From: Thermoproteota archaeon
GTDB taxonomy: Archaea > Thermoproteota > Thermoprotei_A > Sulfolobales > Ignisphaeraceae
Reading direction: 5' to 3'
Length of the DNA: 64,000 nucleotides
NCBI GenBank assembly: GCA_030550585.1
Contig: JAUQPB010000002.1
Span: forward strand, 20,001 to 84,000
The translations under genes and the position numbers were made by a program. The notes beneath the pieces were generated by a model. It had not been told where the DNA came from. It searched no databases and saw only the letters and a list, made by a program, of their open reading frames with translations. Each line of letters starts with the position of its first letter. Within the stretch, counting starts at the first letter, position 1. Below are positions 36,117 to 58,657 of the stretch, in pieces.

Positions 36117-36193
36117 GCCGCCGTAGCTCAGCTCGGTAGAGCGCCGGCCTTGTAAGCCGGTGGTCGCGGGTTCAAATCCCGCCGGCGGCTCCA
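36117..36193 (+). tRNA. tRNA-Thr (TGT), CCA encoded; left attachment site of the island
   Basis: GCCGCCG/CGGCGGC acceptor, loop CTTGTAA, T arm GCGGG-TTCAAAT-CCCGC. Confidence 0.95.
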
Positions 36194-36384
36194 GCAATTG
36201 AATGAACTCAACTCCTTCTAAAACACTTCTGAAATCATATTGCATGTGATGGATATCGACCATGCAATTGCCGGAGGCATCTATAAGAGTCAATGACTTT
36301 TACACATCCTTTAAATAGAAAGAAACCTGCACCAGTATAACTACTACTAGAACGGTAGGTTTCTAGAAACCTGGTTCTTGAAAA

Positions 36385-36606
36385 CTTCTAGAGCATATAG
36401 TTCTAGAAGCTACAGAACTAGGCTATGGAACATGCTGGATTGGTGCATTTGATGAAGCTGAAGTCAAGAAGATTCTGAATATACCGGATAGATACAGAGT
36501 TGTAGCATTAATAACAATAGGTATAGCTTCAGAATCACCATCACCAAGACCTCGAAAACCGCTGAAAGAGATAGTATCTCTAAACATCTTTGGCAACCCA
36601 TGGTGA
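36385..36606 (+). pseudogene. Nitroreductase-family C-terminal remnant
   Basis: Plus strand reads LEHIVLEATELGYGTCWIGAFDEAEVKKILNIPDRYRVVALITIGIASESPSPRPRKPLKEIVSLNIFGNPW*; no N-terminal half found. Confidence 0.7.
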
Positions 36607-36862
36607 TTACTCAATAAATATTGCACCAGATGATAGCGATATCTAAAGCATTTATGCTACACCTAACTCTAATCTAGCATAACGATATAGCTAAGCGTCT
36701 TTGGATAGAGATTGATGTACAGTATCCATGCTGTATAGAGTGTAATTGATTATCCAGAATCTCCTATCGAGATCCAGTAAACCAGGGTTCTAGAACTAAG
36801 TGTCTCAAGCTCTATTTGAAGTAGATCTATTGACTAGATACACCACCATCATTATCATAGGG

Positions 36863-36918
36863 ATAGAGATACACCATTGTATCTCTATAGCGATAGATTT
36901 TTTAGCCTAGATCTATCG
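36863..36918. repeat. Two adjacent perfect hairpins
   Basis: ATAGAGATACA-CCAT-TGTATCTCTAT followed by CGATAGAT-N12-ATCTATCG. Confidence 0.6.
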
Positions 36919-36985
36919 AGATAGACTTGGTGTAGAGTTTTGTCGAATTTTTGAGAAGCCTAAGCTCTATGTCTATGCACCACCT

Positions 36986-37795
36986 ATGATATCTCTCTTT
37001 TCAGCTATACTCTATGGTTTAGCTGCTCTTACCAACTATTTTACTGGTGAAGATCAGTACCTCTGGGAAAGTATCGTATATACGCTCTATTCTCTAGGTT
37101 TTCTAGGACTCTATGTGCTACTCTCAATTATTGCTGCATTAGAGCCTCGTCTAGAGGTCTACATGGTTGGTTTAGGTCTTGTAGCATCTATCTATGCTAT
37201 CTATCCAGCAATTGTCTTAATGGTTTTTGGCGGTATCGTGATATATGCTATAATGTTTTTCTATCTAATGGTATCTGTCACATATCACCCAAAGGTCTAT
37301 GGATACAGTAGGTTCTGGGGTATACCGAAGATTCTTCCAATCATAGTTGGTGCTCCAGTAGCTACTCGTGAGCTAGCTACAATAGTTTGGGAGATATATA
37401 ATCTACATAAGGTTCCTAACATGGAGCCACTAACAACACTAACTCTAGCGATATTGGTTCCAGTACTAATCATGTGTCTAGGAGATATACCTCCCTATAG
37501 AAGGATGGTGAAAATTCTACAGCTACTCGCTATAGCTATAGCAACTATAGCTTACCTATGGCTACTTCGCATAGAGATAGCAGGGTTCCGGATACCCCAT
37601 ATAGTGCTTCAGAAACTAGAAGAATACAGAGCTATAGATATGTTTGAGAAAGGGTTTAGAGCTATAGGGATGCTAGGTCTTTTAGCTTCAGTAGCAACAT
37701 TTGTAGAAGTATTGAAGCATAGCGCAGATGTAAAGAGCTATAAAAAGAAGAGACAAAGAGCTATAGAATCGGTAGAAGAAGTAGAGCTGGTGTAG
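36986..37795 (+). CDS. Multi-TM membrane protein
   Basis: 269-aa ORF with several hydrophobic segments. Confidence 0.55.
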   Translation: MISLFSAILYGLAALTNYFTGEDQYLWESIVYTLYSLGFLGLYVLLSIIAALEPRLEVYMVGLGLVASIYAIYPAIVLMVFGGIVIYAIMFFYLMVSVTYHPKVYGYSRFWGIPKILPIIVGAPVATRELATIVWEIYNLHKVPNMEPLTTLTLAILVPVLIMCLGDIPPYRRMVKILQLLAIAIATIAYLWLLRIEIAGFRIPHIVLQKLEEYRAIDMFEKGFRAIGMLGLLASVATFVEVLKHSADVKSYKKKRQRAIESVEEVELV

Positions 37796-37814
37796 CAAGA
37801 TAGAGCCACTAGAG

Positions 37815-40800
37815 CTTTCTACTCCCTTTCGGGAGTTTCTAGGTCTGTACCTAGCGCTCGGTCTCGCGTTTGGAGCATTCGACTTTCTACTCCCTTTTGG
37901 GAGTTTCTGTAAGTTCGAAATGTTTCCAGCATCAGACAAAGTGACTGTGACTTTCTACTCCCTTTTGGGAGTTTCATACTTGCTGTAGCTAAGTGCGTAG
38001 ATGTAGACAAGCTCATGACAACTTTCTACTCCCTTTTGGGAGTTTCTAGTTTACGCGTACTTAGATGCACCTGTGCAAATAAAAATCGAGACCTTTCTAC
38101 TCCCTTTTGGGAGTTTCATCTATTAAAAAACTAAAAGAGAGAATCAGACAAGAACATACCTTTCTACTCCCTTTTGGGAGTTTCCTAGCGTTAGGGTAGT
38201 CAAGGTGGTGGTGCCTCAAGTTGTTAAGCCCACTTTCTACTCCCTTTTGGGAGTTTCGCCAACGAGTTGCCAGAGGTAATCGAAGATATTTACGCCTACT
38301 GGAGGCTTTCTACTCCCTTTTGGGAGTTTCATGCATCTAATGCTGAACTCAATAGAAATAGTGCAAGAGATTTAACTATACTTTCTACTCCCTTTTGGGA
38401 GTTTCTCTGATATATGACACTCTAAGTGCAATAATTCAAGCATTTATACGCCTTTCTACTCCCTTTTGGGAGTTTCTGATGATATTGCTGTTGTTCTTGG
38501 TACATCGCTACTTGGATTGAAGCTTTCTACTCCCTTTTGGGAGTTTCCCGGACGGGGGCCCATGGCGAAGATATATATGTTTTGACCGAATCAGCATATC
38601 TATTCTTTCTACTCCCTTTTGGGAGTTTCACAATTAACAATCCCGATTTTAGTGTCTATATGCTTAGAAACAAAAACTTTCTACTCCCTTTTGGGAGTTT
38701 CATAGAGCTCTACATTGCTTCTCAATATCAGCAGAGTACTCTGTCCTTTCTACTCCCTTTTGGGAGTTTCCCAGACAAATATCATGTTATACTACGAGAT
38801 GTTGTTAATAAATTAACTTTCTACTCCCTTTTGGGAGTTTCGCTGAAATTGTGCATCCATTAGATACAGTTGAAACATTATTAACCTTTCTACTCCCTTT
38901 TGGGAGTTTCATTCAGTACAGAGGGTGGGGAGAAGGATGGAGTTGCGTGAATTCACTTTCTACTCCCTTTTGGGAGTTTCATTGTTCATACACCTCCCCC
39001 CACCCATAAACATCACCACACTATACTCCTTTCTACTCCCTTTTGGGAGTTTCCGAGTATCTTCTTGAATATGCTCAACAAGAAATCGAACGGTTCTTTC
39101 TACTCCCTTTTGGGAGTTTCCAATCCTTCACGAGCGTTCTTCAGTATATCCGTCTTTAATTCCCACTTTCTACTCCCTTTTGGGAGTTTCAAAACGGTAT
39201 GTTGTAGTACATAGCAACATCACCTACCACCCTATTCTTTCTACTCCCTTTTGGGAGTTTCGCTATTACATGCACATATACATCACAGACAATATCAGGT
39301 TATTCAGCTTTCTACTCCCTTTTGGGAGTTTCCAATAGAAAACTATTGATGATTGAATTATATTGCAGAGATACTGGTCTTTCTACTCCCTTTTGGGAGT
39401 TTCGCAGAGCGGGGTTTTTATATGTTTTTTGAATTGAATGTATATACACTTTCTACTCCCTTTTGGGAGTTTCAGTGCTGACTTTATAGCGATAACAAAA
39501 GACACTATATATGTGCAGCTTTCTACTCCCTTTTGGGAGTTTCTTATATGTAGAGACAGTATCGTTGCAGTCAATTCAGATTCAGTCTTTCTACTCCCTT
39601 TTGGGAGTTTCGAAGCCAAAGAAAACATAGAGGAAAACATACTGGTTATGAAGATAACTTTCTACTCCCTTTTGGGAGTTTCCCATCAATTGATGAATGG
39701 TATGAGTGGATGGTTGATGTATTATCAGCTTTCTACTCCCTTTTGGGAGTTTCAGCTCAACCCTATTGATGTTGAGAAATTCCTCTCTAGACTTAGACTT
39801 TCTACTCCCTTTTGGGAGTTTCGAGACATATCTAAAGCTGAAGAAAATATACATTGATCCGCCAAAGAACCTTTCTACTCCCTTTTGGGAGTTTCGAGTT
39901 TCAGAAATCGAAAGAGATCAATGTTGGTCGACCATCAAGTCCATTCGTCTTTCTACTCCCTTTTGGGAGTTTCAAAAGAACGTTGATAAAATCGATTTTT
40001 TGAGGGATTATCTCAAACATCTTTCTACTCCCTTTTGGGAGTTTCGTAACACAGACCATAAAGTCGAGACATCTAATCACCACTCTAACGGATATCTTTC
40101 TACTCCCTTTTGGGAGTTTCTATCTGTGGATGTGCTAAAGATCTACGGTGAGCTTGGTAGATACTCTTTCTACTCCCTTTTGGGAGTTTCAGATAGAATA
40201 GACTATATAACATTCTTATTAGCAGAGAAGATACAGAATCTCTTTCTACTCCCTTTTGGGAGTTTCCTAATGCTTTCTTTACCTCAACAAGAACCTCGAG
40301 TATGATATCTTTCTACTCCCTTTTGGGAGTTTCTTGATCCACCGGTCTATGTGTTGAGATACGAAAGATCCTGCTCCTTTCTACTCCCTTTTGGGAGTTT
40401 CTGTGTATTATGTTCATTATGATAGTAAGAGCGGTAAGTTGCTTTCTACTCCCTTTTGGGAGTTTCGTTGTATATGAGTTGTTCATAGTATATCCTTTTT
40501 CTGCATAGATCGCTTTCTACTCCCTTTTGGGAGTTTCTTATACAGATCCACTAGATTGATTTCTTTTGCTTTCTTTTCTCTCTTTCTACTCCCTTTTGGG
40601 AGTTTCCTATGTGTTTCAGAATCTTCTGATGCATAGAAATATAAATAGTACTCCTTTCTACTCCCTTTTGGGAGTTTCTTTGCTAGCTCTTATTCAACGA
40701 TAGAGAGATTAGCTAAGGATATAGTCTTTCTACTCCCTTTTGGGAGTTTCATCTGAAACTGAATTTGTAAATGTTGTTGAAAAATTAAAAAACGAAATCT

Positions 40801-41036
40801 TTCTACTCCCTTTTGGGAGTTTCGGAGAATAGTCCTCAAGCTTTGGGGTCTTGATAGTAAGCACGAGAAAACCTTTCTACTCCCTTTTGGGAGTTTCTAG
40901 AGAATGGAAGCTTGTTGCACTTAAAAATGAAAATGAGTTCGTTGACTTTCTACTCCCTTTTGGGAGTTTCATAGAGGGGAGAGGCTGGAGCCGGCAAGAA
41001 GAGTCAGGAGTCTTTCTACTCCCTTTTGGGAGTTTC
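37815..41036 (-). CRISPR. CRISPR array: 46 repeats of 25 bp, 45 spacers (about 40-57 bp); predicted transcription on minus strand
   Basis: Repeat (+) CTTTCTACTCCCTTTTGGGAGTTTC; crRNA-sense GAAACTCCCAAAAGGGAGTAGAAAG ends in GAAAG; leftmost repeat (37815) has a T-to-C change, as expected at a leader-distal end. Confidence 0.97.
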
Positions 41037-41445
41037 TGGTATAGCTACCTCAGGTCTAGTGTTAGCGTCATTCATAGCATGTAGGCTTAAGAAACCTCTA
41101 TCTTATGTTAGGATAGACAGAAAGATCCACGGTACACAGTCTATTGTTGAAGGTGTTGTAGAATCAAAAAACTGTTTAATAGTAGATGATGTAGCAACTA
41201 CTGGAGGATCTATAGAACATGCATATAACGCCATAAAGGAGGTTAGGGGTATGCCAACAGCAGCATTAGTGGTTGTAGATAGAGAACAAGGAGCAAGAAA
41301 GAAGATAGAGTCACTCGGTATGAAATTCTATAGCTATATTAATGTATCAAACATCTTCAAGTATCTTTATGAAAAAGGATTAATCGATACAAGAACCTAT
41401 GACGAAGTTATTAACTATATTAAGCGTTTTAGTCAAGATCTATAG
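41037..41445 (+). pseudogene. pyrE: Orotate phosphoribosyltransferase copy 2, N-terminally truncated at the CRISPR repeat edge
   Basis: [26 protein letters not shown]...[17 protein letters not shown] aligns to internal part of copy 1; roughly 70 N-terminal residues missing. Confidence 0.9.
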
Positions 41446-41524
41446 ACAGTGCCCAAAGAGTTCATCATTGTAGACAGAAATGTTTTATAGTTTACAGATA
41501 GTAGCATTAGATTTGGGCATAAAG

Positions 41525-42454
41525 ATGATCACATCATTTAAAAATAGAGATGTGGTATCAATACTGGACTTCACTAGGGAAGAACTCGAGACATTGTTTG
41601 AGTATGCAGATAAATTCCGCAAAGTTGAGGGAAAACTGAATCTACTAAACGGAAAGGTGGTTTCTCTCGCTTTTTTTGAACCATCTACTCGTACAAGGCT
41701 CAGTTTTGAAGTAGCAGCAAAACGTCTAGGTGCAGATGTTGTATCAATCATAGGTGAGGAAGCCTCCAGTATAGCTAAAGGCGAAAACTTGGCAGACACA
41801 ATACGTATGCTTGATGCATATTCCAATATTATAATTCTAAGACATAGATATGAAGGAGCAGCAAAATATGCTGCAGAAATAGCCGAAAACCCTGTTATCA
41901 ATGCTGGCGATGGTATTCAACATCATCCAACACAAGCTATGATCGATCTATATACAGTAAAGACACTCTTCGGATCAATCGATGGATTAGTGTATGTTGT
42001 TTTAGGGGATCTTAGATATGGAAGAGCAGCAATGTCATTCATATATGGTCTTTCTCTATATAAGCCCAAGAAGTTGTATGTAGTTGCTCCTCAACTATTA
42101 CGTATACGTAACGAAGTTCTACAAATACTGAAAGAAAGAGGTCTACCTATCGAAGAGAAAAATGATGTGAGAGAAATAATCAGTGAAGCAGATGTTCTAT
42201 ATGTTACACGTATCCAGAGAGAAAGGTTTCCAGATCCTATGGAGTACGAAAAAGTTAGAGGTTCGTATATTGTTACACTAGATCTTCTAGAGAAAGGTAA
42301 GTCTACATTAAAAGTTCTACACCCTCTACCAAAAGTAGATGAAATAGACCATAAAGTTGATACATCAAGATATGCAGCCTACTATCTTCAAGCTAGATTA
42401 GGTGTACCAGTAAGAATGTCTTTATTATCCCTAGTTTCTGGTGTAGAGATATGA
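41525..42454 (+). CDS. pyrB: Aspartate carbamoyltransferase catalytic chain, copy 2
   Basis: [33 protein letters not shown]; clear homolog of 22525-23457. Confidence 0.95.
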
Positions 42455-42933
42455 GTTCAGAAAACATACACACGTTGGTGGTTCCAAAAATACTGAATGG
42501 AACTGTCATCGATCATATACCAGCAGGTAGAGCTCTAGACATACTAAAGGTATTGAATATAACTGGAGGAGAAGGCTGGAGAATAGCGGTACTATTGAAT
42601 GTTGAGAGCAAGAAGTTAGGTAGAAAAGATATAATAAAAATAGAGCGTAGAAAATTAACTTCAGCAGAAGTAAACGTCATAGCACTCATAGCTCCTACAG
42701 CAACTATAAACATTATCGAAAATTTTGTTGTAGTCGAGAAGTTTAAGGTAAATGTGCCAGAGGTTATAGAGGGTGTAATTAGATGTCCGAATCCTACATG
42801 TATATCGAATAAAGAACGAGAACCAGTAAAGTCTAGGTTTAGAACATTATCAAAGGATCAGCTTATATTTCGTTGCGAATATTGTTCAACCATTGTAACT
42901 AGAGATGATATACTAAAGCTTATCATAAGATGA
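42451..42933 (+). CDS. pyrI: Aspartate carbamoyltransferase regulatory chain, copy 2
   Basis: [24 protein letters not shown]...CEYCST. Confidence 0.95.
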
Positions 42934-43716
42934 ATGTTATGTCTATTAAACCTGCCAAAATATTAAGAATAGATAGAATAGCTGAAAATACGTATCTCTT
43001 AGCTGTAGAATTATTTACGCATATGGACAATATTTCTCCGTTCAATTTTTATGGTTTGGGTACCTCGCGTAGATGAAATACCCTTAAGTATAGCATTTTT
43101 GGATAACAACATTATATATTTTCTATTCAAAGTTAAAGGTCTAGGTACAGAAACACTCTCTAAAATGTGTAAAGGTGAGATAGTAGGTTTAAAGGGGCCT
43201 CTAGGTAGAGGTTTTATCGTTGAAGACTATACGAAAAGTGTACTAGTGATAGCTGGAGGTATAGGTATAGCTCCCATCCCTTTCTTCATATATAGGTCAA
43301 AATACAAGAAGCTCGATGTTGTATGGGGAGTTAAACGAAGAGAAGAACTTTTTGATTTAAATATATTTAATCAAGATATTGGAGATAGGTATAGATTATT
43401 TATGGCAACAGAAGACTGTAGCTATGGTTTTTGTGGAACAGCTTTAGAGAGGCTAAAGAATATTCCACTAGAAGATTATGACATCATATTAGCAGTAGGA
43501 CCACAACCTATGTTGAAAGGTGTATGCGAATACATAAGAAACACTAACCTAGAAGCATATGTAGCTCTTGAAACAATGGTTAAATGCGGTATAGGTCTAT
43601 GTGGTAGTTGCTTCATTAGATCATCAAACAAGCTTCTCTGTATAGATGGACCAGTATTTAGATGTGATGAGGTGATACAGCATCTTGGAAAGACTAATAA
43701 TAGCAAAAACATATGA
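42930..43716 (+). pseudogene. pyrK: Dihydroorotate dehydrogenase electron transfer subunit copy 2, frameshifted near 43045-43050
   Basis: N-terminus [40 protein letters not shown] in one frame, remainder [15 protein letters not shown]... in another; [2Fe-2S] CGIGLCGSCF retained. Confidence 0.8.
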
Positions 43717-44956
43717 AGATGGTTATTTGAAAGAGATAATGGTGTTAGTTAATAAAGGTATTGTTGAAAGAAGATTTAACTATATCGACAAGAATCTATG
43801 TAGAGATTATGAATGTATAGATCTTCGTGCTAAAGGCATACTTCTCCCAGGGTTCATAGATATCCACGTACATTTACGTGGACTTAAACTTAGTTATAAA
43901 GAAGATGAAGAAAGCGGTACGAAGGCTGCTTCTAGAGGTGGTTTTACAGCTGTTGTAGATATGCCTAACACTTTACCACGAATAGATAACAAACAAGCTC
44001 TTCAAGAAAAAATAGAAGCACTTAAGCTAAAGAGTAGAGTTGATTTTGGAATCTATGTATCTCCAGCAAAAGACTATAGGGAAATGTATGACATGTTGTA
44101 TGAAGAAGGTGTTGTAGGTGTAAAATTCTTTCCTCAAGATCTTCACCTATTCCCCAAGATCCTCAATATTACTAGTTCCAGAGATCTAAATAGAATAGTG
44201 ATTGTTCATGCAGAACATCCATATATGGTGAATGATTGTGAAGCTGGTTCTAGATGGATGTGTAGACCTATTGAAAGCGAGCTTTCAGCTCTAGATATTG
44301 TTCACATGCATGTTAAAGAAAATATGAAGATCCATATCACACATATAACAAATGTTCTAACACTATCTTTAGCAAAAAGATATAAATTCACTACAGATAC
44401 TTGTCCACACTATCTCTACTTAGATTCTTCTCACGAGAAGGAAATGGGCTGTATAGCTAAAGTAAATCCTCCTCTTAGAACTCCTTCAACAAGATACTCA
44501 TTATTGAAACTACTGAAAGCATTTGATGCAGTTTCCTCTGATCATGCGCCTCACAGTTTCGATGAAAAACTTCTTGATTTCTCGATGTGTCCATCAGGTA
44601 TAGCTTCTCTAGAATTGACTGCTTCCTTAATCCTAAACTTAGTAAATTTAGGTGCTATAGATCTAGATGACGCTGTAAAGCTCTTATCTCGAGGTCCCTC
44701 CAAAATACTTGGACTCAAGAGATGGGGATGTACGTATATTGGTTGTATAGCTAGTTATACTGTAGTGGATATGAATAAAGAATTTCGTGTTGATCCTGAA
44801 ACATTTTATTCGAAATCTAGATTTTCGCCCTACAAAAAGAATGTATTAAAGGGTGTAGCTACAGCAACTATAGTCAGAGGCGGTATTGTTTATATCGATG
44901 AAGGATATGAAGAGAAAATCGAACCTGAACCTTTAACAAAGTTTATGGTGAATTAA
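43685..44956 (+). CDS. pyrC: Dihydroorotase, copy 2
   Basis: GFIDIHVHLRGL, GVKFFPQDL, VHAEHP, SSDHAPHS. Confidence 0.93.
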   Translation: MERLIIAKTYEDGYLKEIMVLVNKGIVERRFNYIDKNLCRDYECIDLRAKGILLPGFIDIHVHLRGLKLSYKEDEESGTKAASRGGFTAVVDMPNTLPRIDNKQALQEKIEALKLKSRVDFGIYVSPAKDYREMYDMLYEEGVVGVKFFPQDLHLFPKILNITSSRDLNRIVIVHAEHPYMVNDCEAGSRWMCRPIESELSALDIVHMHVKENMKIHITHITNVLTLSLAKRYKFTTDTCPHYLYLDSSHEKEMGCIAKVNPPLRTPSTRYSLLKLLKAFDAVSSDHAPHSFDEKLLDFSMCPSGIASLELTASLILNLVNLGAIDLDDAVKLLSRGPSKILGLKRWGCTYIGCIASYTVVDMNKEFRVDPETFYSKSRFSPYKKNVLKGVATATIVRGGIVYIDEGYEEKIEPEPLTKFMVN

Positions 44957-44958
44957 TT

Positions 44959-45864
44959 GTGCTGGAAACAGTTGTAGCCACAATAAGTCTTAGACATCCT
45001 GTAATGAATGCTAGTGGTATACTTGGAACACATAGAGAACATATATCAAGACTTGTAAGTTATGGATTAGCTGCTGTAGTTACAAAGACCATAACCCCAG
45101 AACCTAGGGAAGGTTATAATCCACCAATAATAGTTGAGCTACCTACAGGTGGATTAATTAATGCTGTAGGTCTAGAGAATCCTGGCAAAAATGTTATTAA
45201 AGAGCTTGTAGAGGAAGCTAAAAAATATAGCATACCTATTATAGTTAGTATTGGCGGTAGAAATGAAGATGAATTCATTGAGGTTGCTGTAGAAGCAGAT
45301 ATGAATAAAGCTGATGCTGTAGAGCTTAACTTAAGTTGTCCTCATACCAAAGGATATGGTGTCGAGATAGGGGTAGATCCTAAAAATGTGTACTCAGTAG
45401 TTAAAGCAGTTGTTTCAACAATAAAGATACCTGTTGTAGCTAAACTAGGGTTAAGCGATAGAGTAGTTGAATCAGCAGAAAAAGCATTAGAGGCAGGAGC
45501 CAAAGGTTTAACGCTCATAAACACAATAAAGGCTATATATATAGATGTATATTCTTTAAAGCCTGTATTAACGAATATCTATGGAGGTCTTTCTGGTACC
45601 CCAATACATCCTATAGCTGTCAGAATTGTCTATGATGTGTATAAAGAAACTAAAGCCGATATAATAGGATGTGGAGGGGTAGTAAACTGGCAAACAGCAG
45701 CAGAAATGATTCTAGCTGGAGCAAAAGCTATTCAAGTAGGAACAGCATTAATGCGTGATCCAAAGAGAATTGTAGAAGATATAGTTAAAGGATTGAGTGA
45801 ATGGCTAGAAACAATAGGAATAAAAGAAATTTCACAAGCAGTTGGTCTCGCTCATAAGGTGTAA
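44959..45864 (+). CDS. pyrD: Dihydroorotate dehydrogenase, copy 2
   Basis: HPVMNASGILGTH, NLSCPHTKGYGVEIG, IIGCGGVVNW. Confidence 0.93.
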   Translation: MLETVVATISLRHPVMNASGILGTHREHISRLVSYGLAAVVTKTITPEPREGYNPPIIVELPTGGLINAVGLENPGKNVIKELVEEAKKYSIPIIVSIGGRNEDEFIEVAVEADMNKADAVELNLSCPHTKGYGVEIGVDPKNVYSVVKAVVSTIKIPVVAKLGLSDRVVESAEKALEAGAKGLTLINTIKAIYIDVYSLKPVLTNIYGGLSGTPIHPIAVRIVYDVYKETKADIIGCGGVVNWQTAAEMILAGAKAIQVGTALMRDPKRIVEDIVKGLSEWLETIGIKEISQAVGLAHKV

Positions 45865-46702
45865 AGATGTGTCTATACTCGTTATATCAACATTAAACAC
45901 GAATTTAGCGATGGAGATAAATCGATACATTAAAGAGTTGAGTAATAAATATTCATATATAGTGACATATGTATGGGAATACTTGCCTCAACACTCTCTA
46001 GAGATACAATATTTCCATAAACCATTGGCTAAACTCGAGAAAGACTTTGAACAAATAGTAAAACTAAAGGAATTGATAGTATTTGTGAACACTATTTGCA
46101 TAGATTCTGTAAGACAACAATTAATGAATTACATAGACAGTAAAGTGGATAACGTTGTACTAATTGATTATTGTCTCAATCATGTTTCTTGTTATAAGAA
46201 TCTACTATCGCTACCTCCGTATATTACTATCGTAAAAACATTCATAGACCGTATAACCACAATTTTTTCAAATATCGACGAAATATTGATACGTATAAAG
46301 ATATGCAGAGAATGCTTGAAGACTCTTTCTATTCTACATAATATCGATACTATCAAGACTATAGATCTGTTCCAAGAACTAATAAGACAAGTTATTAAAA
46401 ATCATTACAGAATAGAAATTTCAATTAATACGATTACAGAATTTCTTTTAACTGCAAGAGGGATAGTGAAGGGGTACAGAGAAGAGAGAGCATATATGTA
46501 TAGAGTTGAGATATCTGAAGAACATACGAATAAAAGCTACATGCTACAACTTTTAGCAATCCTATTGTTAATAACCGATGGATATAATAAAGCTATGAGA
46601 AACATCTGCATCTCAGACATTGGTCTAGATGAAGGACTTTACTCAATCTTCTTTGCATATCTTGTTAAACATGGTGCAAACATCTCTGTGAATATACTCT
46701 AG
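45842..46702 (+). CDS. Uncharacterised protein at the end of pyr operon 2
   Basis: 286-aa ORF overlapping pyrD2 stop; same position as 26894-27577. Confidence 0.55.
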   Translation: MVSLIRCKDVSILVISTLNTNLAMEINRYIKELSNKYSYIVTYVWEYLPQHSLEIQYFHKPLAKLEKDFEQIVKLKELIVFVNTICIDSVRQQLMNYIDSKVDNVVLIDYCLNHVSCYKNLLSLPPYITIVKTFIDRITTIFSNIDEILIRIKICRECLKTLSILHNIDTIKTIDLFQELIRQVIKNHYRIEISINTITEFLLTARGIVKGYREERAYMYRVEISEEHTNKSYMLQLLAILLLITDGYNKAMRNICISDIGLDEGLYSIFFAYLVKHGANISVNIL

Positions 46703-46887
46703 ATAACGTTATATTAATGATGTAGCGACACAATACTTTTAATTGCTAAATACTAGCTAAAGATGTTTCACAATATATAGTGTTGTTTCAAAATCCTATA
46801 GAATTACTTCTATTGAGGCAATTTTAATTTATTTACCAGCTATAGACATATTTACCGATACAAGGATAAATAGTTTGGGATAACGAT

Positions 46888-49392
46888 ATGGAGTCTAAAA
46901 AACGTATAGCCATATATGTGGTAGTGATAATTGTTTTGGCTAGCATTACTATATATAGCTATTATTATCTAGTGAGAGAAAAAGATAAAGAGATAACTCC
47001 AAAGACATTACCAACAGAATCCATATCTCTAGTCACAGAAACAATACTTGTGGAGATTTCAACACCTACAACGAATACCATCAAAGAAGAGGAAGATATC
47101 ACAAAAACTACATTAACTACACCTACAACTTTTCCACAAGAAACGATAACCACAGTTATTAACCATACTACTAGTCAACCACCTTTATATCACCTATCGA
47201 CAGAAACCTTTCCACAGGAAAAGGGTTTAGCTATGAATATAATCTATTATCCCAAAACAGTTATTTCGTGTTACGAGAAAATCGAAGTAATGTTCAATAT
47301 ATCGAACCTAATGTACAGAAATCCATACAACTCAAGCGACATAGATGTTGTAGGATACATCTATACACCAAATAACGAGGTTATCAAAATTCCAGCGTTC
47401 TACACAAGGAACTACACGATTCAAAGTATGGGATCGAGGGAACATATAGTTTTATTCAATACGCCACCTCTCTGGGCATTACGTTTTACACCAAAAGTCT
47501 CTGGAGAATATAGGGTAGTTATAGAGGCTAGAAACAGTAGTGGGGTAAAAATTTCGAGTGAAGAGCTGAAGATACAGGTTTCTGAATGTAGAAACAAAAG
47601 AGGATTCATATCAATTGATGAATCAAAGAAATTCTTGGTGTTTGAAGACGGATCTTCAGAAATAATGCTAGGCATAAACTTAGCTTGGCCTCCAAACAAA
47701 CTTGAGGCTATATCCTTCTATAGCTCATGGTTCAAAAGACTTAAAGAACTAGGTGTTAAGGTTGTACGCATAGGTCTTGTTCCATGGTCTCTAAATCTAG
47801 AATGGAGTAATTTGAATCGCTATAGTTTAGCAGATGCAGCAAGAATAGATGAAATCATCAGATTGGCAGAAGAACATGATATCTACATAATATTTGTGTT
47901 TATGTGGCATAACGAACTTGCAGATGATTGGGGAAACAATCCATATAATGCTTTAAGAGGAGGGCCTATAAAGAATCCTGAAGAATTTTGGAGTAATCCC
48001 ATAGCCATAGATATATTCAAGAATAAGGTGAGGTACATAATCGCTAGATGGGGTTATTCGCCACATATACTTGCATGGGAATTAGTCAATGAAGCTGATC
48101 TAACATCAAACTTCTTTAGCATTAGAGATGCTTTTGTTAATTGGGTTAAAGAGATAAGTAGTTATGTAAAGTTACTTGATCCCTATAAACGACCTGTAAC
48201 TGTAAATCTTGCAGACTATAACTCAGAACCAAGAGTATGGAACATAGAGAGTATAGATTTGATAACAGTCCATAGATATGGACCCACAGGGTTTAAGGAT
48301 ATAGGATCCTCAATACCAAGTATAATAGATTCTCTATGGAATACCTATAGAAAGCCTGTAGTGATAACAGAGTTTGGTGTAGATTATAGATGGATAGGGA
48401 TGCAGGGATTTACCGGAATTCCGTATTGGGCTATAGATAGAGAAGGTATAGGTCTTCATGAAGGATTATGGAGTTCCACTTTATCAGGATCTCCTATATC
48501 GGCCATGAGCTGGTGGTGGGATACACAAATAGAGAGATACAACCTGTTCTATCACTTTAAAGCTTTATCTGAATTCCTAAAAGGTGTTGACCCAGTAAAA
48601 GGAAGACTAAGTAGATTAAATGTATATGTAGAATCAGCTTCAACTATCGAAGGCAATACAACTTCCTTAATACTTTATCCAAGTGCTGGATGGATCTGGG
48701 TTTCACCAGTAAAACAGAACATCTACACTATACACCCTAACGGAAAGATAGAGGGTGATACATCGCTACTTAGTGGCTTTGTGTACGGTAAAGGACATAA
48801 CCAGCGGACTCTGAATCCCATATTCATAGTTACGTTTCTCGATAGAGGTAGAATGATCTTGAATGTAAATTCTGTAGGAAGAGGATCAGCAGTAGTATCG
48901 ATATATGTCAATAACACAAAGATAGAGGAGAAAGTGTTACCCGATATAGATGGTAAAAGTGATGAAGATGCTAATGAGTATAATATCGACATTACAATAG
49001 ATTTTGAACCTGGCACATATGAGATTAGAATAGATAATGAAGGTACAGATTGGTATACATGGAACTACATAGTATTCGAAAACACTATATACGCTTCAGC
49101 AAAGGTGCAGGCAATAGGTTTAGGTAATAAGAGTTTTGCAATAATGTGGATAAGGAATACAGACTTTAACTGGTGGAATTATGCAGTATTAAACAAATCA
49201 CCTATACCTCTAAAGAATGTAGTGATTTCAGTAGAAGGTTTAGAAGATGGTATGTATGTAGTTGAGTTTTGGGATACATTTAGAGGAGAAGTAGTAGAAA
49301 GTAAAGAGGTAATGGTTACTCAAGGAAAAGCACGCATATCAATAGATAGTTTAGAGAAGGATCTAGCTTTAAAGATGTATAAAACAGAGTAA
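46888..49392 (+). CDS. Secreted/membrane-anchored GH5-like glycoside hydrolase, multidomain
   Basis: N-terminal TM, Thr-rich linker, TIM-barrel signatures AWELVNEAD and VVITEFGVDYRW, C-terminal accessory domains. Confidence 0.8.
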   Translation: MESKKRIAIYVVVIIVLASITIYSYYYLVREKDKEITPKTLPTESISLVTETILVEISTPTTNTIKEEEDITKTTLTTPTTFPQETITTVINHTTSQPPLYHLSTETFPQEKGLAMNIIYYPKTVISCYEKIEVMFNISNLMYRNPYNSSDIDVVGYIYTPNNEVIKIPAFYTRNYTIQSMGSREHIVLFNTPPLWALRFTPKVSGEYRVVIEARNSSGVKISSEELKIQVSECRNKRGFISIDESKKFLVFEDGSSEIMLGINLAWPPNKLEAISFYSSWFKRLKELGVKVVRIGLVPWSLNLEWSNLNRYSLADAARIDEIIRLAEEHDIYIIFVFMWHNELADDWGNNPYNALRGGPIKNPEEFWSNPIAIDIFKNKVRYIIARWGYSPHILAWELVNEADLTSNFFSIRDAFVNWVKEISSYVKLLDPYKRPVTVNLADYNSEPRVWNIESIDLITVHRYGPTGFKDIGSSIPSIIDSLWNTYRKPVVITEFGVDYRWIGMQGFTGIPYWAIDREGIGLHEGLWSSTLSGSPISAMSWWWDTQIERYNLFYHFKALSEFLKGVDPVKGRLSRLNVYVESASTIEGNTTSLILYPSAGWIWVSPVKQNIYTIHPNGKIEGDTSLLSGFVYGKGHNQRTLNPIFIVTFLDRGRMILNVNSVGRGSAVVSIYVNNTKIEEKVLPDIDGKSDEDANEYNIDITIDFEPGTYEIRIDNEGTDWYTWNYIVFENTIYASAKVQAIGLGNKSFAIMWIRNTDFNWWNYAVLNKSPIPLKNVVISVEGLEDGMYVVEFWDTFRGEVVESKEVMVTQGKARISIDSLEKDLALKMYKTE

Positions 49393-49674
49393 ATATAGAA
49401 TACAAAGCAGATACCAATGTTTCAACACTTTTATTATCTATTTTGTTTGTATTCACAATATCTCTACATAATATTACAATATTGAACTCTATAGATGGTC
49501 GGATACCAATAGATATATTTAATAAGGCTCTCTACATGTATAGTTTATGTTACATTTATCAAAATCATTAATTAGGTGATTTATAGAATATGAATAGGGT
49601 GTATCTATTTCCTAACTTCTGTGAAGAACAATCATAACCTCGGAGAACCCGAGATTGTTGAAAAACGCTGAGAG

Positions 49675-50322
49675 TTAAGCAGAGCGTTTCTTGTACATGT
49701 AGGAGTAGTTTGTTAAGTCTATAACCTTAGATGTATCCGTTTTGTATCGGTGTTCTTGTCTTAATGTTATAATTACATGTAAACCCATCTTGCTTAAATT
49801 CTCGAGAATTTCAGGGAATATGTATTCTGATGCATATTCGTCAAGATAGTTAAGAGGATCATCTATTATGGTTATAGGGGCTTTTACTAGTAAAGTGGTA
49901 ACCAACATTACTCTTCTCCTTTGCCCCATTGAGAGTTCTCTTAATCTAGCTTTTTGAGCATGGGTAAGACTGACTATCTCCAGCGCTTTTTCAGCCTCGC
50001 TTCTTTCCACGGGTTTCATGTACATGTATGGAACCAGCCTTAAGTAGTCAATAACCCTCAACTCTAGGGGCAAATCCACGTCCTCGGGAACGTAGTATAT
50101 GTCTTTCCTATGTTTTGTTATGTCAACTCCGTTAAAGGTGATCTTACCTCGTAAAGGAGGTAGAAGAGTTGCAAGCGTTCTTGCAAGTGTGGTTTTACCA
50201 ACACCGTTGGGACCAACAAAGATCAGAATATCATTCGCGTTAACGCTAAAGTTTAATACCCCAATAACCGGAATCTTACCATATCCGCATACTAGATCAG
50301 TTGCTTGTAACATGTTCATCAC
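49675..50322 (-). CDS. ABC transporter ATP-binding protein
   Basis: GPNGVGKTTLARTLATLLPP Walker A, LSMGQRRRVMLVTTLLVKAPITIIDDP. Confidence 0.9.
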   Translation of the reverse strand: MMNMLQATDLVCGYGKIPVIGVLNFSVNANDILIFVGPNGVGKTTLARTLATLLPPLRGKITFNGVDITKHRKDIYYVPEDVDLPLELRVIDYLRLVPYMYMKPVERSEAEKALEIVSLTHAQKARLRELSMGQRRRVMLVTTLLVKAPITIIDDPLNYLDEYASEYIFPEILENLSKMGLHVIITLRQEHRYKTDTSKVIDLTNYSYMYKKRSA

Positions 50323-50788
50323 CCATCAATCCCAATATACCACTTAAATCGAATACAATGTTGATTGACTGAAGTAGAAGAGGTATAAGAGCAAGGAAGT
50401 ATTCTGGATAGTACTTCAACACTATTAACCCAATCATGGACGGAACTAGAGGCCCTGAAACTGTTGCTAAATACAATCTCTCCAGGGGTACATAATCTAG
50501 GGGCTCTAATCGTATCATATGGTTGCTGAGCATAACAGATACATCGATGTCTAGTATCGCGAAATGAACAAGCTCGTGTAGGAGCGTTCCTGCAATAAAC
50601 AATGCTATTATGGCAATTGACGATAATATAAAGCTTAACCCTAAGTCAAGTGATGCCCATGTCATCATAATAGAGCCTATTGTGCAAGTCAATGCAAGGA
50701 GAATAGTTGGCTTACTTACGAGTAGGTGTTTTAGAATTAAGCTTACAAATAGACTGTATTTTCTTTTCTTTACAACTGCTTTAGCCAT
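50297..50788 (-). CDS. Integral membrane putative zincin-like protein (HELVH)
   Basis: AGTLLHELVHFAILDIDV inside a multi-TM protein (DUF3267/M50-like). Confidence 0.65.
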   Translation of the reverse strand: MAKAVVKKRKYSLFVSLILKHLLVSKPTILLALTCTIGSIMMTWASLDLGLSFILSSIAIIALFIAGTLLHELVHFAILDIDVSVMLSNHMIRLEPLDYVPLERLYLATVSGPLVPSMIGLIVLKYYPEYFLALIPLLLQSINIVFDLSGILGLMGDEHVTSN

Positions 50789-52167
50789 GGAATCACCTTG
50801 TATCTTATAAAATATCCAACCTTAACAGGCAAATCGTAAAATAAAATAGAGATGATGAACACCGATATGGTGTATGCAACAGCCATCGTGGTAAGATAAT
50901 TTTGTACTATTTTTTGTACTATTATCCGCCCCATGAGCGTGCCCACGATAAGGTAAAACATAAAACACTTAATAATCTCAAAGTCTTTTTCAACTCTATT
51001 AAGCGTGAACATTCCTGCTAGCAATCCTGTAGTTAAAATGAGTATGGGAACACCTTCTAGCTCGATTAAGCCAAAAACGTGGAGAACGCTGTATATGACT
51101 AATGCATATAACCAACCAAATGAGAAAACAGAAATAACGTTCAATACCCTTGTAGAAAACCTTGTATTCGTAAGGAATTTAACGTAATGCATGTATGAAT
51201 CAATGTACCTATCCACGACATTTAACAATGGAGGAACTACGAACATAGCTAGACTCCCGAAAAGACTGCCGAGCATCAATGCAAGTAGTGTTTCCTCGTC
51301 AAAACCTAAATCACGAACATTGGTTGTTACACCTCCTACGCTTATAGATAGTATTACCTTCTCCCCAAGTGCGAGCTTCCCGAGAGCTATGAGTAGAAAT
51401 AGAAACGCAGTAGTTGCGAGTATGTATGGACTGAATGATGCGTATCCAAGGCTTCTTAACACTTCAACTTTTGGAATTTTACTCATGAAAAGGTCGGTTA
51501 GTATCTTAATCAGTACTGGTGAAATCGAGTAAGCGATCAACACCAAAAGTAAACTCAAAGGTATCGAGATTACCATGCTAATGCCCAGTATTATTATCGA
51601 TAATAGTGATGACACGGTTGCTGTAATCCTTATGTTATGCCAGGACGCTATCAAGAATCCAAGGAGAAGTATGTATGTTGTGAAGAATATGTACATATTC
51701 AATGGGAGCTTCAGAACATGGATGTTTAACACGAACAGAAGTGAAAGAGGAAGAATCAACAACATGTAGTTGAACACGGAAAATAGAAGACTAACATCTT
51801 GTACCTTAGCGATGGGGTGCTGGTACAACTTAAGCTTTTTAAAAGAATTAAACCTGTTGATATATAGAAATCCTACTAACAGGAAGAGGAATATGCTGAA
51901 CGTGATGTAACCACTAATTATTCTCAATCTATGGGTAATGTCTAATTCTGTCAGGATGTCTAAGTACTTAGTGAGCTCTTTTCGTATATATAGCTCGTTA
52001 GCAATGAAGGAAAATATGATACTTAGCGGAAATAAGTAATCTTGTATTACGAGTAAAAAGTAACATCTAAAAAGGAAAAATATTGGGAGAAAAATATAAA
52101 AAATCTTCTTACATTTATTCATATTCGACATTACCTGCACTTGCAATTTAGAGTAACGAAGAGCCAT
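50770..52167 (-). CDS. Large multi-TM membrane protein, putative permease of the adjacent ABC ATPase
   Basis: 465-aa hydrophobic ORF overlapping its neighbours on both sides. Confidence 0.65.
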   Translation of the reverse strand: MALRYSKLQVQVMSNMNKCKKIFYIFLPIFFLFRCYFLLVIQDYLFPLSIIFSFIANELYIRKELTKYLDILTELDITHRLRIISGYITFSIFLFLLVGFLYINRFNSFKKLKLYQHPIAKVQDVSLLFSVFNYMLLILPLSLLFVLNIHVLKLPLNMYIFFTTYILLLGFLIASWHNIRITATVSSLLSIIILGISMVISIPLSLLLVLIAYSISPVLIKILTDLFMSKIPKVEVLRSLGYASFSPYILATTAFLFLLIALGKLALGEKVILSISVGGVTTNVRDLGFDEETLLALMLGSLFGSLAMFVVPPLLNVVDRYIDSYMHYVKFLTNTRFSTRVLNVISVFSFGWLYALVIYSVLHVFGLIELEGVPILILTTGLLAGMFTLNRVEKDFEIIKCFMFYLIVGTLMGRIIVQKIVQNYLTTMAVAYTISVFIISILFYDLPVKVGYFIRYKVIPWLKQL

Positions 52168-52583
52168 GAAATAGAAACACTACACTCTTCGACGTCACCT
52201 TTGCATGTAAGTAAAGGACAGGCTAAACCACAAGTTGCTAGATACACAGCGATGAACACTGCAGCTAGTATCACAATGGTGATTAATACTCCGTAGAGAA
52301 ACAACCTAGTTTTATAGCTTTTACTCGATTGCTTCTTGTGTATTGAGTAAGTAGTTAGAAGCGCTGAAAGTGTGGATAGTGGTATTATAGTGTGGGGGTT
52401 TCCGTGGTAGGAAACAACACAACTGTTGTTCTCGCAATAACTCCCGCTTATATTTATCAGGGGGATTCCCAGCCCGATGATTGATAATAAGACTGACGCA
52501 AGGAAGACTACTTGAGCTATTAAAACTGTTAACATCAAAGTTGTTGCCACGTAATACAGTCCCAGTATTACATGCCTTTTCAT
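52131..52583 (-). CDS. Small membrane protein with Cys-rich C-terminus
   Basis: Two or three TM segments then CGLACPLLTCKGDVEECSVSISWLFVTLNCKCR*. Confidence 0.6.
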   Translation of the reverse strand: MKRHVILGLYYVATTLMLTVLIAQVVFLASVLLSIIGLGIPLINISGSYCENNSCVVSYHGNPHTIIPLSTLSALLTTYSIHKKQSSKSYKTRLFLYGVLITIVILAAVFIAVYLATCGLACPLLTCKGDVEECSVSISWLFVTLNCKCR

Positions 52584-52749
52584 AACCTGCTCTCACCTAC
52601 TGTTAAAATCTCATGTATGAAATAGTTAAAAAATCTTTATGAACGTAGAGTGATCATGAATGTGTATGTTCAACTACATATGCTTAAAATTCGTCTCTTT
52701 TCGCAACTTGTGGTCTACCATAAGGTTGTAGAACTTTCTCCGAAAGCCT

Positions 52750-52935
52750 TCAGGCTGTCTTTAGCGGTCTTGAGCTTCTCTCTGCTCGTTGATTTTGCTT
52801 TCTCCAGGGTACTGCTTGAGAACTCTGGCTAGGTGCTTGGGGACGCTCTTAGGATTTTTGCTGTTTTGCGGTAGGCTTTCTCCTGCTTCCTTAGCTTCAC
52901 AATGTATTTCTCCTTCTTTCTCAAGGAGTAGAATA
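52750..52935 (-). pseudogene. Decayed helix-turn-helix protein remnant
   Basis: Reverse strand reads VKLRKQEKAYRKTAKILRASPST in one frame and ARVLKQYPGESKINEQREAQDR in another. Confidence 0.4.
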
Positions 52936-53161
52936 ACGTTTTCGGACACTTTTACTATCTGATTACTGTCTTACTGTTACTTATCACGTTATTTTACTAT
53001 TTATTGCTATTGCTCCTGTTGATTTATCCATCCTCTGCAACTCTATTCTGCTACTCTGCGAACAGAAAAACCATCCATGTAAAACACTCTCCTCACATAA
53101 AACCCTGTATCCTGTGTTTTGCATGATTGGTAACATGTCTTCATCATGAATCAGCTAGTTT

Positions 53162-53749
53162 ATGTCTAGACGATTAATCCATGGAATCCTCGGTTTACCC
53201 AACTCGCCTAAGTTCCTTAAGCTGTATCAATTTCACTTTCAATTCTTTCCATTATATTCAACGAAAACAATATCAAATAAAGTTACTATATTACTAGCTA
53301 TATTTAAATTTAATGGGAAATGGTATGCAATTACATCAAGTTTTACAGCTGGAACCATACTATGGGAGATAGAGGATCCTACATCAACGGTTTTTACCTA
53401 TGTTAAAACAATATTCGAGAAAGGTCGTGAAAATCCCTGCATATATCCTGTTACTACATCTAATGGCGAAATAAGGTTCATGATGTCATTGGCCACAGAT
53501 ACAGAATTTGGTAGTCGTCATAAAATCTATGTATTTGACACACACTTCAACCTTTTGGAGGAATACGACATCATTACATATAGAGTTTAGTCAGCAGGAC
53601 AATCATTTTACCTAGATCCATGGTACATCTACATAAATCAAGATCAATCTCCCACAAGAACTTTTCAAAACTCAGGTATATGGCCTGGAGCATATATAGA
53701 GATATATAGACTTAAGACAAACTATAGATACTACATTGAGGAGAAATAG
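53162..53749 (+). pseudogene. Hypothetical protein interrupted by an in-frame TAG at 53588-53590
   Basis: ORF 53162-53590 continues in frame as SAGQSFYLDPWYIYINQDQSPTRTFQNSGIWPGAYIEIYRLKTNYRYYIEEK*. Confidence 0.45.
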
Positions 53750-53819
53750 AATCCTACAGATCAGTCTCAGCGATATAATTGATACTTTAGTAAAATATAG
53801 TTGAATGTAGTTCTATTGC

Positions 53820-53980
53820 TGGAGCCGCCGGCGGGATTTGAACCCGCGACCACCGGCTTACAAGGCTTGTTCATATATATGTTGATTTGCATGAGCGATA
53901 TTTGTTGCATGCAATATCTAGTTGCAGATGTATTTGTTTTATGTCAAAGATTCTCTGATAAGCTTTTCGATGTATCTGGG
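53820..53980 (-). repeat. 161-bp inverted copy of integrase 3' end plus tRNA-Thr 3' half
   Basis: Reverse complement matches 56292-56452 with one mismatch (53849 versus 56423). Confidence 0.92.
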
Positions 53981-55064: not shown

Positions 55065-56333
55065 GTGTGTGGTTTGTGGTTCAAGGATCTCGATCTATCT
55101 AAGATCTCTGATGATGCTCGCTACAAGTTGTTCGAATACATTGTGAACGTTAAGAAGCTCAAATCATCTGATCTCTCTATCTCGTATTCGACGTTTAGCA
55201 GGGTTAGGAATAGAAAGATACCTGTATCAGATTCACTACTCATAAAGATACTTCAGCACATAACACCCGAAGAATTTGCAAAGCTGGTGTCGGCTGGAGA
55301 GAGGCTTAGAGCTCTAGGTATAGTTAAAGAGGATGGATCTATAGACTACTCACTAGCGCTAGAATTTGTAAAGCTCATACTAAGAGACGAGTACCTGAAA
55401 AACCTAGTGCTGAGGTTCGTTGTCCAAGAGTTTAAAGAAGATATTAGGAAAATGCTTGGAGTGAGTTTCGCAGGCATAAAGCTTGAGTGGAGTGAAGACT
55501 TCGAGAACTTTCTATCAGAGAGAAAGAAGCGTAGAAAGGTAAGAGACCCAGAGACCATAAACTACTACAGAAACCTATTCAAGAAACACCTAGAGGGGAA
55601 AGAACTATCAGAAGAACTAGTAGAATACGTAGCTAACCACAGAAACGGGTGGCTTAGGAACGTATTCAGACACTATATACAGTACCTATACCACAGGAGA
55701 AGAATTCCCCCAGAAACATTTGGCTGGATAATGGAGGTAGTCCCCTCAAGAGGGTACAAACTAGATGTAAGACCCTACCAAATCTCCATAGAAGATGTTA
55801 GAAAGACCCTAGAGTTCTTGAAGGAGAACCACAAACTGTACTACACAGTATACAGAACAATGCTAGAATCAGGAGCAAGATTCGAACACATACTGGAGAT
55901 GATAAGGACATGGAACCCTAATGAAGTAGTGGTCATAGAGTCCATAGATCTGGAGACGGAGAGGTTAGTGTGCTTCGAGGATAGGGGGTTCTGCAGATAC
56001 TACCTAGGGCTGAGAGGTCACCAGAAACCGTGTGAATGGATATACATGTCTAGAGGTACTATAGAGCTCTTGAAAACACTAGCACCCAAAGATATTGATA
56101 GGAATAGTGTTAGAAGGTATGCCAAGAGGCATAACCTAACCCTACCGAAGATGTTTAGGAAAGTCTCATGGAGGATAATGGTTCAGACCATGCCTAAGGA
56201 GGTAGCGAGGTTTATCCAGAGCAGATTCGGAGAACTAAAGACAAGCGAAGCGAGGTACGAAGACCTACTAACAGAAGCAGACAAACACTACCCCAGATAC
56301 ATCGAAAAGCTTATCAGAGAATCTTTGACATAA
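55065..56333 (+). CDS. int: Archaeal tyrosine recombinase (integrase)
   Basis: 422 aa; location next to attR; C-terminal MLESGARFEHILEMI...WRIMVQTMPKEVARFIQSRFGELKTSEARYEDLL resembles archaeal phage-type integrases. Confidence 0.8.
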   Translation: MCGLWFKDLDLSKISDDARYKLFEYIVNVKKLKSSDLSISYSTFSRVRNRKIPVSDSLLIKILQHITPEEFAKLVSAGERLRALGIVKEDGSIDYSLALEFVKLILRDEYLKNLVLRFVVQEFKEDIRKMLGVSFAGIKLEWSEDFENFLSERKKRRKVRDPETINYYRNLFKKHLEGKELSEELVEYVANHRNGWLRNVFRHYIQYLYHRRRIPPETFGWIMEVVPSRGYKLDVRPYQISIEDVRKTLEFLKENHKLYYTVYRTMLESGARFEHILEMIRTWNPNEVVVIESIDLETERLVCFEDRGFCRYYLGLRGHQKPCEWIYMSRGTIELLKTLAPKDIDRNSVRRYAKRHNLTLPKMFRKVSWRIMVQTMPKEVARFIQSRFGELKTSEARYEDLLTEADKHYPRYIEKLIRESLT

Positions 56334-56452
56334 AACAAATACATCTGCAACTAGATATTGCATGCAACAAATATCGCTCATGCAAATCAACATATATATG
56401 AACAAGCCTTGTAAGCCGGTGGCCGCGGGTTCAAATCCCGCCGGCGGCTCCA
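56292..56452 (+). repeat. attR region: integrase 3' end plus tRNA-Thr 3' half (partner of inverted repeat 53820-53980)
   Basis: GCCTTGTAAGCCGGTGGCCGCGGGTTCAAATCCCGCCGGCGGCTCCA at 56406-56452. Confidence 0.9.
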
Positions 56453-58139: not shown

Positions 58140-58327
58140 TACTGGTTGTGCCCACTATACAGACTATCTAATAAGATTAATAAAACTGTAGATGAATGTT
58201 TATCACAATCTCCGCAACGTAGCTCGGCAGCATGTTGTTGAAAATCATTTACATTGCCATGTTATAATACTACAAACACTGTATTTGTATCAATACTGCA
58301 CTTTGACTTGCATCTTTCGATGTCCGA

Positions 58328-58648: not shown

Positions 58649-58657
58649 AGTCTCACC

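What the first reader, a model, noticed from the sequence alone, without database searches (positions are those of the whole stretch)
40970..41445. CRISPR array fused at an exact repeat boundary to the middle of pyrE, apparently replacing the leader
Seen: the last full repeat ends at 41036 and 2 nt later the sequence is in-frame pyrE ([11 protein letters not shown]...), matching internal residues of the intact pyrE at 21866-22468 and lacking about 70 N-terminal residues. Known: crenarchaeal repeats usually end in GAAA(G/C) in crRNA sense, and degenerate repeats mark the leader-distal end. Both place the leader on the right, exactly where pyrE now sits, and no AT-rich noncoding leader is visible. 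Inference: the leader was lost when a pyr operon became joined to the array. One mechanism would be recombination between a leader-proximal spacer that had been acquired from a pyrE gene and that gene itself. Repeat-edge breakage or a Cas1-Cas2 off-target event are alternatives. The TTG inside the repeat (41026) could even act as start codon of a repeat-pyrE hybrid.
Basis: partly seen in the sequence, partly recalled or inferred. Interest (0 to 1): 0.85.

Follow-up and report, generated by a model that had tools for sequence, protein, structure and literature searches.

The report
Leaderless CRISPR array fused to pyrE
In a heat-loving archaeon, a CRISPR immune-memory array has lost its control region and runs straight into the middle of a nucleotide-synthesis gene; both pieces come from a sister species inside an inserted island, and the join looks like the scar of recombination between a CRISPR spacer copied from that gene and the gene itself.

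Summary
A 46-repeat array (37815-41036) ends at its leader side and one base later pyrE begins at codon 64, followed by an intact pyrB-I-K-C-D run. No leader lies there or left of the array; other arrays of the genus carry the leader exactly at this side. Array repeats, array left flank (98%) and pyr side (97.8%) match a sister species (G003), where they are unlinked, while the host's own pyr operon (21-27 kb) is only 66-69% identical. The foreign DNA lies in an integrase-bearing island bounded by tRNA-Thr att repeats (36147-36193 / 56406-56452). The spacer-recombination idea passes one test: CCT, the 5' flank of the only clear protospacer found and a CCN-type PAM, sits exactly 46 nt into pyrE, the array's modal spacer length (1.6% by chance). 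Best reading: a leader-proximal spacer taken from pyrE recombined with pyrE, removing leader and gene start, and the product moved between species. Rivals: one-ended Cas1 integration, end joining, or an assembly join across the 46-nt identity. Spacer-target recombination is known in staphylococci; a chromosomal archaeal case would be a new variant.

The parts
36117..36193 (+). tRNA-Thr(TGT), intact; its 3' part (about 36147-36193) is the left attachment repeat (attL) of the island
   Evidence: ARAGORN; 46-47 bp repeat also at 53820-53866 and 56406-56452
36194..36386 (.). element arm next to attL; short matches lie near integrase copies in other genomes of the genus
   Evidence: no match to G003 at the array flank
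36387..37814 (.). sister-species DNA: 3' end of a nitroreductase gene plus a 269-aa membrane-protein gene (36986-37795), the leader-distal flank of the array
   Evidence: 98.0% to G003:C2:285288-286745, where the nitroreductase is complete
37815..41036 (-). CRISPR array, 46 repeats/45 spacers, crRNA sense on the minus strand; degenerate oldest repeat at 37815; repeat variant CCCTTTTGGG of the sister species (host arrays have CCCTTATGGG)
41037..41082 (-). inferred remnant of the newest spacer: 46 nt of pyrE between the last repeat and CCT (AGG on + at 41083-41085)
   Evidence: frequency of CCT at 46 nt = 0.016; CCT 5' of the protospacer of G003 spacer 19 in two genomes
41038..41445 (+). pyrE': orotate phosphoribosyltransferase lacking the first 63 residues; the open frame extends into the repeat (TTG at 41026)
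41480..45864 (+). pyrB, pyrI, pyrK, pyrC, pyrD of the sister species, all open
   Evidence: 97.2-99.2% to G003, no stops, no gaps
45842..49615 (+). further sister-species genes (286-aa unknown; 834-aa secreted protein with a weak DUF5060 match)
   Evidence: mostly 97.5-99.5% to G003 C4
49616..53294 (-). insertion relative to G003: ABC ATPase and membrane proteins; no match in the genus genomes tried
53295..53819 (.). sister-species DNA just downstream of its tRNA-Thr(CGT)
   Evidence: 95.6% to G003 C4, L039:4310-4881
53820..53980 (-). inverted attachment fragment plus element arm: footprint of the element in the donor's tRNA-Thr(CGT); 99% inverted repeat of 56292-56452
55065..56333 (+). archaeal integrase, 422 aa, intact
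   Evidence: Phage_integr_3, 3.4e-24; relatives near tRNA genes in G000:C4, G009 and G003:C6
56406..56452 (+). right attachment repeat (attR), then host chromosome
   Evidence: carries GGTGGCC against GGTGGTC at attL; uninterrupted tRNA-Thr site in G006

Best explanation
The junction is the product of recombination between a CRISPR spacer and the gene it came from, formed in (or from) a G003-like Ignisphaera and carried into this host in an integrative element. Steps. (1) Inferred: the donor's array took up a 46-nt spacer from pyrE, its own or a close relative's, next to a CCT motif, as its newest, leader-proximal spacer. (2) Inferred: recombination across that 46-nt identity joined the array side to the pyrE 3' side, so leader, first repeat and pyrE codons 1-63 were left off this molecule. 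(3) Shown as anatomy, inferred as history: the fused segment now sits between tRNA-Thr att sites beside an intact integrase, in the chromosome of another species. (4) Expected effect: the array cannot gain spacers (no leader; no cas1 found in this genome) and lacks its normal promoter; pyrE' is dead; the host lives on its own intact pyrE.
For: Both sides are ~98% to one sister genome and unlinked there (C2 and C4). The repeat variant is the sister's, not the host's. Leader position fixed by other arrays. Junction flush with the leader-side repeat edge. CCT at exactly the modal spacer length of 46, chance 1.6%, with CCT 5' of the one clear protospacer, seen in two genomes; CCN is the PAM of a Sulfolobales I-A subfamily and the PAM end is inserted nearest the leader (PMC4390879). 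The same lineage does hold a spacer resembling a chromosomal gene: G003 spacer 22 is 90% identical to its own tfb (TFB) gene. att crossover marked by a base difference, plus an uninterrupted site in G006. The parts that recombination would have left off, the sister-type leader side and sister-type pyrE start, are nowhere in this genome.
Against: No parental array with an intact repeat-(pyrE spacer)-repeat was found, nor the reciprocal product (leader joined to pyrE start). PAM evidence rests on one spacer with two homologous targets. The PAM coincidence is 1.6% (CCT) to 3.8% (CCN) at 46 nt, but 12-24% if any length of 42-49 is allowed. No reads were available, so an assembly join is not excluded. 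How the inverted att copy at 53820-53980 and the joins at 36386/36387 and 53980/53981 arose is not explained.
Confidence: 0.5

Rival explanations
1. Assembly join: the donor array has an ordinary pyrE-derived leader-proximal spacer, and a short-read assembler walked from that spacer into the 46-nt-identical pyrE gene. The array would then not really be fused.
For: The needed identity would be only ~46 nt; the assembly breaks inside an array elsewhere (contig C1 starts in one); a second array (C4) also runs without a leader into an ORF.
Against: The sister-type leader side and pyrE start that such an error would leave behind are not in the assembly. The other joins of the segment (36386/36387, 53980/53981) have no repeat that could mislead an assembler, and both outer flanks are host-type with att signatures.
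Confidence: 0.2
2. One-ended Cas1-Cas2 integration: a broken pyrE end was joined directly to the leader-repeat boundary, the normal first site of spacer insertion, and repair kept the fusion.
For: The junction is exactly at the leader-side edge of the first remaining repeat, where the first strand transfer happens (established Cas1 mechanism; papers listed, abstracts only).
Against: It does not need, and so does not explain, CCT at exactly 46 nt. Not known to me as a stable product.
Confidence: 0.13
3. Random end joining: two sister-species fragments (nitroreductase-array and pyrE'-tRNA-Thr) were ligated while being built into the element, and the repeat-edge position is chance.
For: The segment has at least two other joins without evident homology (36386/36387, 53980/53981), so illegitimate joining did occur here.
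Against: Needs both the repeat-edge coincidence (about 3-4%) and the PAM-distance coincidence (1.6-4%).
Confidence: 0.12

Closest known systems
Recombination between CRISPR spacers and phage targets in staphylococci (Varble et al. 2019, Nat Microbiol, cited in PMC8616872; original not readable here)
   Same: Spacer and its target provide the homology; array-adjacent DNA is joined to target DNA and can move horizontally.
   Different: There the partner is an invading phage and the carrier a transducing particle; here the partner would be a chromosomal housekeeping gene, leader and gene start are lost, and the carrier is a tRNA-integrated archaeal element.
Leaderless CRISPR locus F of Sulfolobus solfataricus (PMC4390879)
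   Same: A large array without leader, inactive in spacer uptake.
   Different: No precise fusion to a gene interior was described in the passages read; here the replacing sequence and its likely origin can be named.
CRISPR locus on a 36-kb fragment shared by S. islandicus L.D.8.5 and S. solfataricus P2 (PMC4390879)
   Same: An array moved between related crenarchaeal species with chromosomal DNA.
   Different: There leader and array are intact; here the array is fused to pyrE and lies in a tRNA-Thr island with an integrase.
Spacers matching the chromosomes of mating partners in Haloferax (Turgeman-Grott et al. 2019, as described in PMC12814878)
   Same: Arrays sample chromosomes of close relatives; targeting meets gene exchange and homologous recombination.
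   Different: No array-target fusion is reported in the passages read.
Self-targeting that reshapes genomes (Vercoe et al. 2013; review PMC6990116)
   Same: A chromosomal spacer can force loss of array or target.
   Different: Known outcomes are deletions, by end joining or repeat recombination, not a spacer-to-target splice.

Membership tests
Crenarchaeal type I-A-like CRISPR array | regular direct repeats (24-25 bp) with unique spacers | tested here: met
   46 repeats of 25 bp, 45 unique spacers, mode 46 nt
Crenarchaeal type I-A-like CRISPR array | leader next to the newest repeat | tested here: not met
   pyrE from 41038; leader sequence absent
Crenarchaeal type I-A-like CRISPR array | cas genes, cas1 at least, in the genome | tested here: not met
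   no PF01867 match in G000; present in G003 and six other genus members; other cas genes not tested
Crenarchaeal type I-A-like CRISPR array | CCN PAM on the leader-proximal side of the protospacer | tested here: inconclusive
   CCT in both protospacers of one spacer; too few
tRNA-integrated archaeal element | direct att repeats, one of them the 3' part of an intact tRNA gene | tested here: met
   36147-36193 and 56406-56452
tRNA-integrated archaeal element | integrase gene near one end | tested here: met
   55065-56333, PF16795
tRNA-integrated archaeal element | uninterrupted site in a relative | tested here: met
   G006 has left flank, tRNA-Thr(TGT) and right flank together; G005 has the two flanks at different tRNA-Thr genes, so some rearrangement also occurred
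Orotate phosphoribosyltransferase (PyrE) | PRTase domain with [14 protein letters not shown] loop | tested here: met
Orotate phosphoribosyltransferase (PyrE) | complete N-terminal part | tested here: not met
   63 residues missing against G003 PyrE
Spacer-target recombination product | junction at repeat edge, PAM one spacer length into the target | tested here: met
Spacer-target recombination product | parental array with the intact spacer, or the reciprocal product | tested here: inconclusive
   reciprocal parts not in G000, junction not in IMG/VR; donor strain itself not available

The most novel reading that the evidence does not exclude
CRISPR spacers taken from the chromosome of close relatives act as recombination sites between archaeal species: the array itself becomes spliced to the targeted housekeeping gene and the product spreads on an integrative element. 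In this reading, immune memory of a neighbour's gene helps to bring in the neighbour's operon, and silences itself because the leader is lost.
Probability: 0.25. Interest if true: 0.75.

Novelty: new variant of a known kind. Interest (0 to 1): 0.52.

Why it matters
Spacer-target recombination has been shown with phages in bacteria. A chromosomal case in hyperthermophilic archaea would show that chromosome-derived spacers can remake the genome at the array, give a concrete route to leaderless orphan arrays, and link CRISPR memory with exchange of housekeeping operons between species. It is directly testable with long reads and with a spacer built into a laboratory Sulfolobus strain.

Tried and rejected
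The native pyr operon (21-27 kb) as donor: rejected, 65-69% identity against 97.8% for G003. Leader left of the array: rejected, the flank is coding and 98% to G003's leader-distal flank. Simple duplication in the host: rejected for the same reasons. A reading in which 36117-36386 is the host's native tRNA flank and not an att arm was considered; the attR base difference, the G006 site and arm matches beside integrases favour the element reading, but it is not settled. Protospacer search in phage records: only chance hits. Junction and integrase in IMG/VR: nothing. Naming the genome with genome contigs: its own and very near records are left out by the tool. The primase-polymerase-like protein beside the C4 array had no helpful relatives. 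Literature on a splice of a spacer to a chromosomal gene in archaea: none found in the held papers, which is a limited library.

Full report
What is there. The window is G000:C7:20001-84000, part of a 1.76-Mb, 7-contig genome of the Ignisphaera group: a same-genus genome, G009, is a single contig of 1,875,953 bases, which I recall as the size of I. aggregans, and the closest named relatives of the pyrB product are Ignisphaera MAGs. The array has 46 repeats (37815-41036), the leftmost degenerate. One base after the last repeat pyrE runs in frame from codon 64.

Orientation. Other arrays of the group carry a conserved leader right after the last repeat on this side: two in this genome and two in G003, with AT-rich flanks on the same side of arrays next to cas1 in other genomes. 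So the leader belonged at 41037. It is not there, and the sister-type leader is nowhere in this genome; only the 70-72% identical leaders of the host's own arrays match.

Both halves are foreign. The host's pyr operon at 21-27 kb is syntenic with G003's single operon at 66-69% identity. The second copy, from exactly 41038 to 49615, is about 97.7% identical to G003 C4. The array's left flank, 36387-37842, is 98.0% identical to the leader-distal flank of a G003 array on C2, which shares no spacer with it and keeps its leader. The array's repeats are the G003 variant (CCCTTTTGGG), while the four other arrays of this genome have CCCTTATGGG. Hence this is not a host array that met a host gene.

The island. 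tRNA-Thr(TGT) at 36117-36193 and a 47-bp copy of its 3' part at 56406-56452 bracket the foreign DNA. An intact archaeal integrase (PF16795) lies just inside the right copy. The right copy carries GGTGGCC and the left GGTGGTC, as expected from a crossover inside the tRNA. In G006 the same flanks meet at an uninterrupted tRNA-Thr. A third, inverted copy at 53820-53866, with 114 bp of the same element arm, is attached to the DNA that follows tRNA-Thr(CGT) in G003: a footprint of the same element in the donor species. The joins at 36386/36387 (inside a nitroreductase gene) and 53980/53981 show no evident homology. The path by which this was built is not resolved.

Test of the spacer idea. If the newest spacer came from pyrE, the PAM must lie one spacer length inside pyrE, on the minus strand. 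CCT occurs at exactly 46 nt, the commonest spacer length in this array (11 of 45). Over the neighbouring sequence CCT at 46 has a frequency of 1.6%, CCN 3.8%, and CCT anywhere at 42-49 nt 12.5%. The only clear protospacers, two homologous targets of G003 spacer 19, both have CCT at the 5' side. CCN is the motif of one Sulfolobales I-A subfamily, and the PAM end is inserted nearest the leader (PMC4390879). G003's array also holds a spacer 90% identical to its own tfb gene, so chromosomal genes of relatives appear to be sampled in this lineage.

Mechanism. I take spacer-target recombination as most likely (0.5). Shown: anatomy, foreign origin, missing leader, position of CCT. Inferred: existence of the spacer, the recombination event, transfer by the element. 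In the assembly-error version the pyrE spacer would still be real, because a repeat-pyrE boundary must exist in some molecule; so a pyrE-derived spacer is likelier than the fusion itself. One-ended Cas1 integration and plain end joining remain possible.

Function today. No leader, and no cas1 anywhere in this assembly (99.9% complete), so no new spacers are expected. pyrE' keeps the PRPP loop but lacks 63 residues with the conserved SGLESPFYIDLR segment, so it is most likely inactive (inference). Its differences from G003 are mostly at third codon positions (3, 5, 17), as expected for a gene under selection until recently. pyrB to pyrD are intact; whether they are expressed is unknown.

Novelty. 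Spacer-target recombination that moves DNA is known for staphylococcal phages (Varble et al. 2019, via PMC8616872). Leaderless arrays and inter-species array transfer are known in Sulfolobales, and spacers matching relatives' chromosomes in Haloferax. The combination, an array spliced to a chromosomal gene, is a new variant if real.

Noticed in passing
L009:2836-3414 (G000:C4:788835-789413): A second array of this genome, with host-type repeats, also lacks a leader: two bases after its last repeat an open frame starts that weakly matches LigD-type primase-polymerase from model position 99, with CCA at 42 nt. Possibly a second array-gene join; truncation could not be tested.
   Followed up: partly
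G000 whole genome: Five CRISPR array loci but no Cas1 match in a 99.9% complete genome; the near relative G005 also lacks it, while G003 and most others have it.
   Followed up: partly
L048 spacer 22 (G003:C2:288213-288264): A spacer 90% identical to the tfb gene of its own genome (G003:C4:229699-229754); tfb of the relatives matches at 77-90%.
   Followed up: partly
window 36117-56452; L141, L142, L143: The DNA following tRNA-Thr(TGT) and tRNA-Thr(CGT) is exchanged between close relatives (G005 against G006 and this genome), pointing to repeated rearrangement at tRNA-Thr genes, perhaps integrase-driven.
   Followed up: partly
window 49616-53294: A 3.7-kb block with an ABC ATPase and membrane proteins sits inside the sister-species DNA but is absent from G003 and the other genomes tried.
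   Followed up: no
window 56580-59890: ORFs that look like a protein kinase, an FHA protein and a von Willebrand-type protein lie just right of the island; partly matched in G009.
   Followed up: no
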